The notes under the pieces are model-generated. The model was not told the DNA's origin. It saw nothing but the letters and a program-made list of their open reading frames with translations, and did no database searches. DNA of 64,000 nt from Eutypa lata (taxonomy: Eukaryota; Ascomycota; Sordariomycetes; Xylariales; Diatrypaceae). Shown one piece after another: positions 19,067-23,069 of the stretch. Made by a program: the position numbers and the translations under genes. The stretch is from NCBI GenBank assembly GCA_022661535.1, contig JAKULF010000008.1, forward strand, positions 1,736,001-1,800,000, given 5' to 3'. Numbering within the stretch: position 1 is the stretch's first letter; every line of letters starts with the position of its first letter.

Positions 19067-20125
19067 TCACGTCAACACCACCTGTGCTATCGTGCCCTCC
19101 TTCCGCATCTCCTTCAGCTCCAGGTGCTTCTTCCTCGCGTCCGCCAGCCTCTCCTCGTGGCCCGGGTTGCGCTCGAGCACCAGGCTCCTCGCCTTCTCGA
19201 CGAACGTCTCGGCGGGGGGCGGCTTCTTAATCGCATCGGCGATCTGCACGATGCAGCCCTTGGGGCCCGCGACGTGGCCCTTGATGACCACAAGCCCCAT
19301 CTCGTTGTCGACCTTGAGCACGCGCAGGTTCTGCACCGTGTGGCGCTGGCCCCCCATGCGGCCCGGCATCTTCTTCCCCGGGTGGACACGCGAACCGCCG
19401 CCCTGCGACGGGCCCGTCGTGCCGATCGTCCGGTGGTTCTTGGAGTTTCCGTGCGACGCGCCCTGGCCCGCGAACCCGTGGCGCTTCATGCCGCCCGCGA
19501 ACCCCATGCCGCGGCTGTTGCTGCGGGCGTCGACGAACTGGCCGACCTTGAACCAGTCCGGGGCGAGGCGCACGCCGACGGGCAGCAGGCCGTCCTCGGA
19601 GCGCACGCGGAACTCCACCAGGTGCCGCTTGGGCGCGACGCCCTTGGCCTCGTAGTAGCCCAGCATGGGGGCGGTCTCGTTCCCGGCGCTCCGGTGCCCG
19701 CACCCCACCTGCACGGCCCAGTACCCGTTGCTGGCGCGCGTCTTGGACGCCACCACCTCCACCTGCTCCATCTGCAGGATCGTGCACGGCGTCCGCTGCC
19801 CCTTCTTGTTGTACATGGCCGAGACGCCCTTCTTGACCGCCAGCACCCCCGACCGCACCGGCGTCGACTGCGCCCTGCGCTCGAGGGCCGCCGCGGGCCC
19901 CGTCGTCGGCGCCGGCAGCCCCGCCGACACCTGGTTGAACCGCGTGGGCTTCCCTCGTGCCGGGGCCGTCGACCACCCGTATTTGACGCCGCGGCGGGCG
20001 GTGCGCGGTAGCAGGGCGTGGTGCTCCGTTAGGAGGATCCGGGATGTGATCGATGTTGTCGAGGTGTGTTGGGTTAGGCCTGCTGCCGCCGAATGGGCCC
20101 AGCGGGCTGGCAGTCGTGCTGCCAT
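19067..20125 (-). CDS. MRPL9: Mitochondrial ribosomal protein uL3m
   Basis: Large-subunit protein of the mitochondrial ribosome, 352 residues in one exon. The N-terminus (MAARLPARWAHSAAAGLT) is an Ala/Arg-rich presequence. The L3 core is clear: SGVLAVKKGVSAMYNKKGQR, the loop GFAGQGASHGNSKNHRTIG, and HPGKKMPGRMGGQRHTVQNL. The ATG at 20125 was chosen because codons before it are repetitive GT-rich leader with no upstream ATG in frame. The gene is extremely GC-rich at third positions, which creates long meaningless frames on both strands. Confidence 0.95.
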   Translation of the reverse strand: MAARLPARWAHSAAAGLTQHTSTTSITSRILLTEHHALLPRTARRGVKYGWSTAPARGKPTRFNQVSAGLPAPTTGPAAALERRAQSTPVRSGVLAVKKGVSAMYNKKGQRTPCTILQMEQVEVVASKTRASNGYWAVQVGCGHRSAGNETAPMLGYYEAKGVAPKRHLVEFRVRSEDGLLPVGVRLAPDWFKVGQFVDARSNSRGMGFAGGMKRHGFAGQGASHGNSKNHRTIGTTGPSQGGGSRVHPGKKMPGRMGGQRHTVQNLRVLKVDNEMGLVVIKGHVAGPKGCIVQIADAIKKPPPAETFVEKARSLVLERNPGHEERLADARKKHLELKEMRKEGTIAQVVLT

Positions 20126-20808
20126 TGTGTGTGTATATATGTATGTGTGTGTGACTGTGTGCCTTTCTCTCCCCCGGCTGTGCGTATAGGTTTGTATCGT
20201 CTGCTTCGATGCTCTGATGGTCACGTCGAGAGGAATTGACACACAGAAGCCACCTGCACTCACTACAGTTTTCGACGTTCAGGTAGAGCTTCTATCGGTC
20301 TGCTGTTAATTTAGTTAGTGGGTCAAGCAAAAAAGCAAAAGTCTGAGCGTCTGAGCTTCAGGTCGGCTACACGAACCACTTTTTGCCGACGGATATCTCA
20401 CAGATTCAATGGTAGCCAATCCGACAGCTGCCGTCAACTGGGAACACTGAAGTAATCATGAAGAAAAAGACAAACACTTTAAAAGAAAGAGAAGGTAGTG
20501 TAGATATAATATAATATTTATATTTATGTCCTCGTTCTGAAGCCGTATTCTTGTCTTTTTTTTGTTTTTTTTCTTTCATGTATTTCACTGGTTAGTTTAG
20601 GTACCTACTGCTACAAGAGAAGGCAAGCGCATGCAACTTTGGAGGAAGTAATATTTCTCGTGACAGCTGCCAATCAATTCGAGAGGAGAGACTTTTCGAA
20701 ACCTTGACCAAAGCAAAAGAGACATACCTAGGCGTACGAAGAACTTGGGCATATTATTCCGAATATCCAGATCCCCTCATTGCATCCCCTTTTTACCATC
20801 GCTTCAAA
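20126..20808. promoter_or_regulatory. Divergent promoter region between uL3m and Jlp2-like genes
   Basis: 683 bp between divergent starts. It opens with a GT-rich leader on the plus strand (20126-20162) and otherwise shows only low-complexity A/T runs. Confidence 0.5.
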
Positions 20809-21823
20809 ATGGTGTATTATTTCACCTCTAACGTGGTGAGTCCGTCGGCGTTTGTCTACGTCGGCAAGGACAAGTTTGAGAGTATGTACAAGCCCTATAA
20901 TCTTTAACCCTGTTATGGCCGTTTATACACACATTTCCTGACAAGATACGATGCAGATGAGGAGTTGATAAAGTATGGCTGGGAAGAGGATGTCTGGTAA
21001 GTCTCACGACGACGAAACCAATGAACCCAATTACCAGTTCTGCGTATTTATCAAGTGTCCACTAGGGTATGAGTCCGTCCCTATCATAAACCCCCCTTCC
21101 TTTTACTAGTACTAGGATGGATCAAAAGTTTCTCATACCTCCCTCCCTTTTTCCTTTTTTTCTTGTAGTTCCACGCAGACAAGCTATCGAGTGCGCACAT
21201 CTACCTGCGGCTGAACGAGGGGGACGCGTGGGACGCGATCCCGGAGGACCTGCTCGTGGACCTGGCGCAGCTGACCAAGGCCAACTCGATCGAGGGCAAC
21301 AAGAAGGACAACGTGACGGTCATCTACACGCCGTGGTCCAACCTCAAGAAGGACGGCAGCATGGCCGCCGGCCAGGTCAGCTTCAAGGACCCCCGCAAGG
21401 TCAAGAAGATCCTCGTCCCCCAGCGCGAGAACCCCGTCGTCAACCGCCTCAACAAGACCAAGGTCGAGAAGCACCCCGACCTCCAGCAGGAGCGCGAGGA
21501 CCGCCTGCGCGAGCTGCGGAAGCGCGACCAGGCTTCCCAGCAGGCACGGGTGAGTTTGAAAACCCCCCAAAACACCCCCCCTCTTCTCCCTCCCCTCTTA
21601 TCCCCTTTGCTACTCGCTTTGGTTTTCTTAAGGGGTATTTGCTTACGTGATACTTTTATCTTATTTCGAAATGCAGAAAAAGGAAGAGGCGCGGATATCC
21701 AAGGAGCGACAGGAGAAGAAGTGGCAGAAAGATCACGCGTACGATGACCTGTTCACCGAGGAGAACATGGACGCATCGAGCAACCAGAACCGCGACGAGA
21801 ACTGGGAGGATGATTTCATGTAG
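20809..21823 (+). CDS. JLP2: Jlp2/CCDC25 family protein (NFACT-R domain)
   Basis: Homologue of yeast Jlp2 and animal CCDC25. The NFACT-R (DUF814) domain fills residues 1-115 (MVYYFTSNVVSPSAFVYVGK, KYGWEEDVW, FHADKLSSAHIYLRL, VIYTPWSNLKKDGSM), followed by a charged coiled coil and the conserved acidic end DENWEDDFM. In-frame exons are 20809-20881, 20957-20996, a single G at 21066, 21169-21549 and 21677-21823, totalling 213 residues. The one-base exon is required: the Trp of DVWFHADK is split as TG, G and TTC, with a perfect donor at 20997, CACTAG/G/GTATGA around 21066, and TTGTAG before 21169. A single intron 20997-21168 would shift the frame. The family is linked to ribosome quality control and tRNA-like binding; its exact role is unsettled. 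Confidence 0.92.
20997..21168 (+). other. Twin intron around a one-nucleotide exon
   Basis: The first intron, 20997-21065, is 69 nt (GTAAGT to CTAG). One G remains at 21066. The second intron, 21067-21168, is 102 nt (GTATGA to TTGTAG). Together they keep the TGG codon of a strongly conserved Trp-Phe-His stretch. Both sizes fit fungal introns, while a single 172-nt intron would break the frame. It may be spliced stepwise, the second donor being joined to the exon only after the first intron is removed. Confidence 0.75.
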
Positions 21824-22031: not shown

Positions 22032-23069
22032 TTAGATCCCCGAACCCCCACCGCGCCCTCCAATACCACTACCGACCTGATTGACCCCAGTGCCCTTAAG
22101 CGCATGGTCGTTAGGGTTGGGCGCAGCCTCGTAGAGGATATTCGCCGGCGCGCGACCCAGCTGCATCCACTCGCCCTTGAAGCCCAGGTAGCTCAGCCTC
22201 GTAACCTCCTCCTCCTCCTCCTCACCTTCGTCACTATCGTCGTCGTCACCGTCACCACCACTACTAACACCAAAGTTGTCCTCGAAGAACAGCGTCACCC
22301 GCTGCACCTTGCCGAAGAGGGCCCGCTTGACGGGCAGCTCCTGCACCTCGGACGTCTGCGACAGCTCGAAGGTCTGCGTCGGCGCCAGCTCCTCCGCCGC
22401 CTCGAAGTCCACGTCCTCCCGGTTGATGAACACCTTCAGCGTGCGCGGCGCCGAGGCGGAGGGCGAGCTGCGCAGCAGGATCGAGTGTAGCTTCACTTGG
22501 CCTGTGAAGCTATTTTTTTTTAAATCAAGGGGTAGAGATTTATGCGTTAGCTTTTTTTTTCCTTTTTGAAAGTGATTGTGATGGCAATGCTAATAACGAT
22601 AATGGTATTTACGGATAGTGGATATTTCTTTTCTTAATGAAAAGAGCGAATGATGATACATGGAAGCTTGCGACTTAACTAGAGAAGGCGGGATGGAGCG
22701 CTTGCTTGCTTTGTCGGGGATGCGAGGAAAAGAATCAATGCAACCGTGATAAAACCAGAAAAAAAGGGGGGTAGAGGGATATCAGGGGTACTCGACTTAC
22801 GGCACGTTGACGATGATCTGCTCGTCGGTGTCACTCGCCAGCTCAGGCTCCTCCTGCAGCCGCTCAGCCCACGTCTTCTTCACGATGGCCTTGCCCGAGC
22901 CAGGCGACGCCTCGTTCATTGTGTTGATGGAGTCGAAGTTTATGTGCTGGTACAGGCTGTGCTGGATGGCGGGTGTGATGTCATCGGAATGATCATGCTC
23001 GTGGTCATGGTGGCCGTGGCCTCCTCCTCCTCCTCCATGGCCGGCGTGCTCGTCGTGGCAGTGTGACAT
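22032..23069 (-). CDS. PITH-domain protein (PITHD1-like)
   Basis: A PITH (DUF1000) domain protein of 248 residues; this domain is the proteasome-binding module of thioredoxin-like TXNL1 and also occurs alone in PITHD1. Exons are 23069-22801 and 22509-22032. The N-terminus is His/Gly-rich (MSHCHDEHAGHGGGGGGHGH), typical of stand-alone PITH proteins. The domain reads NTMNEASPGSGKAIVK, then QIIVNVPFTGQVKLHSILL across the intron, and the final LSYLGFKGEW. An acidic insert (GDDDDSDEGEEEEEE) sits before that last strand. The acceptor TAG/CTTCACAGG was chosen over the nearby CACAG because only it keeps PFTGQ in frame. It is convergent with the Jlp2-like gene, 208 bp between stops. Confidence 0.93.

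What the first reader, a model, noticed from the sequence alone, without database searches (positions are those of the whole stretch)
20957..21170. One-nucleotide exon (or stepwise twin intron) in the Jlp2/CCDC25 homologue
The sequence shows GATGTCTG/GTAAGT, then CACTAG/G/GTATGA, then TTGTAG/TTCCAC. The family-conserved DVWFHADK peptide needs TGG-TTC-CAC, which is obtained only if the lone G at 21066 is kept between two introns of 69 and 102 nt. A single intron 20997-21168 gives a frameshift in the core of a conserved domain. Spliceosomal twin introns are known in filamentous fungi. A one-base exon flanked by perfect sites is an extreme case, and it suggests recursive splicing in which the first excision creates the exon context for the second donor.
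Basis: partly seen in the sequence, partly recalled or inferred. Interest (0 to 1): 0.8.

Follow-up and report, generated by a model that had tools for sequence, protein, structure and literature searches.

The report
One-base exon in fungal Jlp2 gene
A fungal housekeeping gene appears to contain an exon only one letter long, and related fungi probably share it, because many of their automatic gene models go wrong at exactly this spot.

Summary
The Jlp2/CCDC25 gene at 20809-21823 (Eutypa lata or near-identical) has exons 20809-20881, 20957-20996, G21066, 21169-21549 and 21677-21823. Keeping G21066 gives 213 aa; dropping it frameshifts the NFACT-R core. A database protein identical over all 213 aa lies on a 907-nt contig, shorter than the 1,015-nt genomic span, so it must be spliced. 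The mRNA cannot say which genomic G is kept, but only 20997-21065 / G / 21067-21168 gives it with GT-AG ends on both introns.

Beyond the finding: among the 120 best-listed orthologues, 41 of 99 genome-annotated ones are wrong at this junction, 0 of 21 short-contig ones. Of 38 annotated non-Sordariomycete orthologues, 0 are. Some wrong models carry intron-like peptides that fit TG|GT, AG|G|GTATGG and a phase-0 acceptor in other orders. This speaks against an assembly error and for an old one-base exon in Sordariomycetes. I reached no relative's DNA, no reads and no intermediates. It is not a stwintron; splicing order is unproven. One-base exons are known in plants (APC11, VPS55) and Fusarium (CYP621A).

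The parts
20809..21823 (+). Jlp2/CCDC25 (NFACT-R) gene, start codon to stop codon; 642 coding nt in five exons, 1,015 nt genomic
   Evidence: PF05670 NFACT-R_1 114.6 bits, residues 1-112; PDB CCDC25 chain 7eof_B E 4.9e-59; spans computed
20809..20881 (+). exon 1 (73 nt)
20882..20956 (+). intron 1, GTATGT...GCAG, 75 nt; CTGAC with A at 20941, 15 nt before the acceptor, nearer AG at 20945 passed over
20957..20996 (+). exon 2 (40 nt), ends with TG of the Trp38 codon (phase-2 donor)
20997..21065 (+). intron A, GTAAGT...CACTAG, 69 nt; branch-site candidate TTTAT, A at 21050
21066..21066 (+). one-nucleotide exon G, third base of the Trp38 codon TGG
   Evidence: only position giving the exact P0001 protein with GT-AG ends on both introns
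21067..21168 (+). intron B, GTATGA...TTGTAG, 102 nt; CTCAT with A at 21135, pyrimidine tract, no other AG before the acceptor
21169..21549 (+). exon 3 (381 nt), starts TTC CAC (phase-0 acceptor)
21550..21676 (+). intron 4, GTGAGT...GCAG, 127 nt
21677..21823 (+). exon 4 (147 nt) with stop codon

Best explanation
The gene encodes the fungal Jlp2/CCDC25 NFACT-R protein. Its Trp38 codon TGG is put together from exon 2 (TG) and a one-nucleotide exon (G21066) that lies between two GT-AG introns of 69 and 102 nt. Shown: the sequence, the frame need, and a spliced-looking database protein with the Trp. Inferred: the two short introns are recognised by intron definition and removed one after the other, in either order, because acceptor A and donor B are too close to be bound at the same time. 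Skipping the G shifts the frame, and the reading ends 15 residues later. Also inferred, from protein models only: the arrangement is inherited from an early Sordariomycete ancestor and is widely misannotated.
For: Exact 213-aa match P0001 on a 907-nt contig, shorter than the 1,015-nt genomic start-stop span. Only solution with GT-AG ends on both introns. In the 120 orthologues listed, 41 of 99 genome-annotated proteins depart at this junction and 0 of 21 short-contig proteins do; in the alignment of the 120, 31 lack residues 37-38, and indels elsewhere in residues 1-112 are few. 0 of 38 annotated non-Sordariomycete orthologues depart. The same species name appears with different models at this spot: Sporothrix schenckii (P0173, P0182), S. 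epigloea (P0183, P0186), Apiospora arundinis (P0178, P0189), Xylaria curta (P0079 normal, P0175 not). Decoded peptides: TG| donors (P0051, P0183, P0189, P0190), AG|GGNATGG (P0179), TGG then GTNTGG (P0193). Intron A's branch-site layout resembles that of intron 1.
Against: No genomic DNA of another species and no RNA reads were available; P0001 was seen as a protein only, from an unnamed source. Single non-canonical introns give the same mRNA. Intron A has a weak branch-site candidate and donor B is not the best consensus. 58 of 99 annotated models are normal and could have one intron, none, or a well-handled one-base exon; the 9 annotated Hypocreales I count (order by genus name, recalled) are all normal, against 1 departing Fusarium. 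The 21 short-contig proteins bear no species name and some are probably Leotiomycetes (e.g. P0120, 88% to Amorphotheca). Counts are of related sequences, not independent events.
Confidence: 0.85

Rival explanations
1. One 171-nt intron with non-canonical ends (GT-TA 20997-21167 or TA-AG 20998-21168) is removed; CACTAG|G|GTATGA is chance.
For: Gives the same mRNA and protein. A [CT]AGGGT at a suitable place arises in 2.35% of shuffles.
Against: Such ends are rare (recalled). A match with a GTRNG donor arises in 0.08% of shuffles. In P0193 the Trp codon is followed by GTNTGG, and in P0179 an exon starts GGNATGG, both as expected for G|GTATGG and not for a non-canonical single intron.
Confidence: 0.08
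2. The assembly lacks one G next to a boundary, and the gene has one ordinary 172-nt intron.
For: Would give the same protein P0001; P0001 cannot exclude it.
Against: 41 of 99 annotated orthologues, from many genera, fail at the same junction, as expected if they share the phase conflict.
Confidence: 0.03
3. The main product is one of the annotated shorter forms: the 196-aa Eutypa lata model (exon 1 joined to 21179) or a VW-less protein (donor at 20992).
For: Both are in frame; P0042 equals the first exactly. VW-less models are common, 30 of 120.
Against: None of the 21 short-contig proteins departs. W38, F39 and H40 are invariant in a 13-row alignment that I chose from normal forms and align to identical residues in PDB CCDC25. 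One species name can carry two different models.
Confidence: 0.03

Closest known systems
Fusarium CYP621A one-nucleotide exon (PMC12940212; parts 1 and 2 of 3 of the text read)
   Same: Single G between two GT-AG introns in filamentous Sordariomycetes, same AGGGT string, restores a conserved motif, gene models wrong at the spot; the authors report 18 SRA reads from two species.
   Different: There the lone base is the middle base of a Gly codon in a P450 that the authors find rarely expressed, in Fusarium species. Here it is the third base of a Trp codon in Jlp2/CCDC25, with indirect signs over several orders and no reads seen by me.
Plant APC11 and VPS55 1-nt microexons (PMC4674806: abstract and Discussion; PMC8831610: passages)
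   Same: One-base exon, conserved over a wide clade, missing from annotations; stepwise removal by intron definition proposed for APC11.
   Different: Plants, unrelated genes, shown by RT-PCR and RNA-seq.
[D1,2] stwintrons of Hypoxylaceae and Xylariaceae (PMC9024468, PMC12403724: abstract starts; word searches of the text found none of the terms asked)
   Same: Two consecutive introns in related fungi; likely removed stepwise.
   Different: There the internal intron splits the outer donor between its first and second base. Here the second donor is whole and a base of coding sequence is left between the introns.
Recursive splicing ratchet points (PMC8605326, PMC6110457: abstract starts)
   Same: Acceptor and donor nearly abutting.
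   Different: Ratchet points juxtapose acceptor and donor in long introns and leave no base in the mRNA (recalled); here one base stays and the introns are short.

Membership tests
One-nucleotide exon | Exactly one base between an acceptor AG and a donor GT | tested here: met
   CACTAG|G|GTATGA at 21065-21067
One-nucleotide exon | Both flanking introns have canonical ends | tested here: met
   GT-AG at 20997-21065 and 21067-21168
One-nucleotide exon | The base is needed for the conserved reading frame | tested here: met
   Without it the frame shifts and stops; DVWFH conserved
One-nucleotide exon | Mature mRNA contains the base | tested here: inconclusive
   P0001 protein on a 907-nt contig carries the Trp; which genomic G supplies the base is not shown and no reads were seen
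One-nucleotide exon | Same arrangement in DNA of relatives | tested here: inconclusive
   No relative's DNA found; indirect signs in protein models
Stwintron | Internal intron interrupts a donor, branch site or acceptor of an outer intron | tested here: not met
   Donor B is whole downstream of G21066 and acceptor A is whole upstream of it
Recursive splicing ratchet point | Juxtaposed acceptor and donor without an exon base | tested here: not met
   One base lies between them and is kept in the reading
Recursive splicing ratchet point | Stepwise intermediate | not testable with these tools
   No reads
Jlp2/CCDC25 | NFACT-R domain and long similarity to CCDC25 | tested here: met
   PF05670 114.6 bits against a cut-off of 29.8; 7eof_B residues 1-177 of the query

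The most novel reading that the evidence does not exclude
A one-nucleotide exon in a housekeeping gene was present in an early Sordariomycete and is still kept in many lineages (departing models seen in Xylariales, Amphisphaeriales, Sordariales, Ophiostomatales, Thyridiales, Diaporthales, Chaetosphaeriales, Glomerellales and Hypocreales). Because skipping it frameshifts the message, it may have been kept as a splicing-fidelity check that sets Jlp2 level through decay of mis-spliced mRNA. The first half rests on protein models; the second half is conjecture.
Probability: 0.55. Interest if true: 0.72.

Novelty: new member of a known kind. Interest (0 to 1): 0.6.

Why it matters
The authors of the Fusarium CYP621A report call theirs the first one-base exon for a fungal gene (PMC12940212); this would be another, in a conserved housekeeping gene with signs over many orders. 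In the list examined, 41 of 97 annotated Sordariomycete proteins have a wrong core at this point, so public Jlp2/CCDC25 models need mending. If confirmed, the many natural versions would let one test how a spliceosome handles an acceptor and a donor one base apart, and which intron leaves first.

Tried and rejected
Looked for genomic DNA of relatives in viral contigs and prokaryote genome contigs: no fungal locus; the one locus returned (L003, Melioribacter, 30% identity) was set aside. In the own genome the NFACT-R family search gave 2 matches: this locus and one on contig C5 with an open frame of 1087 aa; I did not examine L001 further.

Rejected: stwintron (no splice element interrupted); assembly error (shared junction failure); the annotated 196-aa or VW-less proteins as main product. 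One search used a start one base too early and gave wrong frames; one search corrected it. One search's pattern counted 47 VW-less forms and missed two with GWEDD; the final count is 49 of 195. The 26 proteins first listed (24 departing, 2 normal) were drawn with a profile of VW-less forms and are used for spread, not for rates. Of the 3,536, 3,474 and 4,136 proteins above threshold, only the best 120 of each list were seen, 195 distinct in all.

Ambiguous: WFFH in Colletotrichum (P0068, P0094) and Sodiomyces (P0088) may be a mended model or a real extra codon; P0182's inserted peptide told nothing; P0193 alone would also fit a gene with intron B only.

Literature: searches showed no report of this exon in Jlp2/CCDC25. 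They cover open-licence PMC papers only; of 557 papers naming Jlp2 or CCDC25 only 25 were listed.

Full report
What is there. The window is G000:C11:1736001-1800000 of a 54.5-Mb, 29-contig assembly. The gene at 20809-21823 reads as Jlp2/CCDC25: PF05670 NFACT-R_1 at 114.6 bits and three distinct CCDC25 sequences in the PDB, best E 4.9e-59. A Eutypa lata database protein, P0042 (MGN70_000807, 196 aa), equals exon 1 of this window joined to position 21179 and onward, letter for letter. So the species is Eutypa lata (Xylariales, Diatrypaceae) or something nearly identical.

The junction. Exon 2 ends GTC TG and exon 3 starts TTC CAC. The 172 nt between them hold GTAAGT...CACTAG, then G, then GTATGA...TTGTAG. 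Joining with the G gives 213 aa; without it the reading runs DVCSTQTSYRVRTSTCG and stops. The TAG of the acceptor is in frame with exon 3, so exon 3 cannot be lengthened upstream in that frame. Enumeration for the exact protein gave 2 two-intron solutions, one with GT-AG ends on both introns, and 3 single introns, none with canonical ends. If any open protein is allowed, 13 two-intron GT-AG combinations and 4 single introns (GT or GC donor) of 40 nt or more remain in frame; only one of the 13 keeps DVWFHADK, and none of the 4 does.

Evidence from mRNA. The search with the 213-aa reading returned P0001, identical over its whole length, on one contig of 907 nt with source tag lgn, which I take from memory to be an assembly of public reads. 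The genomic start-stop span is 1,015 nt, 642 of them coding, so a 907-nt contig holding an unbroken 213-aa frame must be spliced. This indicates a mature message with TGG. It does not show which genomic G supplies the third base.

Evidence from relatives. Of the 120 orthologues listed, 79 carry the [DE][VIL]WFH motif and 41 do not. In the alignment of the 120, 31 lack residues 37 and 38; the other indels in residues 1-112 are the P0042 gap, insertions around 37-41, and insertions after 53 (1 protein) and 57 (2 proteins); outside that are 3 N-terminal extensions and a one-residue insertion after 139 in 15 proteins. Of 21 proteins whose longest contig is 5,080 nt or less, 21 are normal; of 99 genome-annotated ones, 58 are normal and 41 not (Fisher P 7e-5). 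The 21 bear no species names, and some are probably Leotiomycetes. Thirty of the 41 lack VW, which here would be the in-frame model 20992-21168 with donor GAT|GTCTGG.

The query P0092 (Amorphotheca resinae, Leotiomycetes) added 49 proteins, of which 48 are normal and the exception is a Xylaria. Of 38 annotated non-Sordariomycete proteins, 0 depart, against 41 of 97 Sordariomycete ones (P 6e-8; classes by genus name, recalled except Amorphotheca; related sequences, so the P value overstates). Eleven unnamed short-contig proteins are all normal. A profile of VW-less forms brought 26 more proteins, 24 departing. Among their sources are Coniella (Diaporthales), Thozetella (Chaetosphaeriales), Plectosphaerella plurivora (Glomerellales), Fusarium phalaenopsidis (Hypocreales) and Apiospora arundinis (Amphisphaeriales); Sporothrix is Ophiostomatales. 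Over all 195 proteins, 66 depart, 49 of them by lacking VW. Four species names carry two different models at this place: Sporothrix schenckii, S. epigloea, Apiospora arundinis and Xylaria curta. That points to annotation trouble rather than to real protein differences.

Reading the wrong models. If the gene has a phase-2 donor, a lone G and a phase-0 acceptor, a program that does not allow one-base exons must mend the phase, and its mends can expose intron letters. Models with DVC (P0051, P0183, P0189, P0190) use a TG| donor. Models with VWY, VWW or VWYDLS (P0077, P0090, P0030, P0099) fit a donor TG|GTNN.. entered a few bases late. P0179 of Thermothielavioides terrestris (Sordariales) has EED|GMEATRSYLPAGRLKLTRPAAQ|FHVDK: its extra exon starts GGN ATG GAR, which is G|GTATGGAR if N is T (Eutypa has G|GTATGA); YTNAC sits 17 nt before the end. 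P0193 of Xylariaceae sp. FL1651 has DVW|VWYPLMKILPYMSSQVLTWGSQ|FHVDK: after the Trp codon comes GTN TGG, and YTNAC sits 14 nt before the end. Thyridium P0059 (Thyridiales) and Sporothrix curviconia P0106 read VW followed by GTN MGN. The degenerate letters are; their reading is inference.

Against deep conservation: 58 of 99 annotated models are normal, and the 9 annotated Hypocreales I count (order recalled) are all normal, so intron loss or correct handling in those lineages must be assumed.

How it most likely works. Intron A has donor GTAAGT and a TTTAT candidate whose A lies 15 nt before the acceptor, with a nearer AG at 21055 passed over. Intron 1 of the same gene has the same layout (CTGAC, 15 nt, nearer AG at 20945 passed over). 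Intron B has donor GTATGA, CTCAT 33 nt before the acceptor, a pyrimidine tract, and no other AG in between. Intron definition and one-after-the-other removal are inferred; the Discussion of PMC4674806 argues likewise for APC11. The bases before the second donor are AGG before and TGG after removal of A, so the first excision does not improve that donor.

What is known. One-base exons are reported in plant APC11 and VPS55 (PMC4674806, PMC8831610) and in Fusarium CYP621A, the last with the same AGGGT string (PMC12940212). So the kind is known; the gene and the apparent breadth were not met in my searches. The stwintron definition (abstract starts) is not met.

Limits. No DNA of relatives, no reads, no intermediates. 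Rates are for the proteins listed, at most 120 per search.

Noticed in passing
20882-21178: The public Eutypa lata protein MGN70_000807 (P0042, 196 aa) skips exon 2 and the one-base exon by joining 20881 to 21179; it lacks 17 core residues and is probably a wrong model.
   Followed up: yes
20941-20956: Intron 1 passes over an AG four bases after its CTGAC branch-site candidate and uses the next AG, the same layout as intron A.
   Followed up: partly
P0068, P0094, P0088: Colletotrichum and Sodiomyces models read DVWFFH: a mended phase, or a real extra Phe codon that removed the need for the one-base exon.
   Followed up: no
19067-20263 (-): Minus-strand open frame that looks like a mitochondrial ribosomal protein uL3 (recalled resemblance, not searched).
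   Followed up: no
22032-22496 and 22797-23069 (-): Two minus-strand open frames that look like exons of a PITH-domain protein (recalled resemblance, not searched).
   Followed up: no
L001 (G000:C5:2360103-2360444, -): The only other NFACT-R match in the genome, in an open frame of 1087 aa; probably the Rqc2/NEMF homologue (recalled).
   Followed up: no
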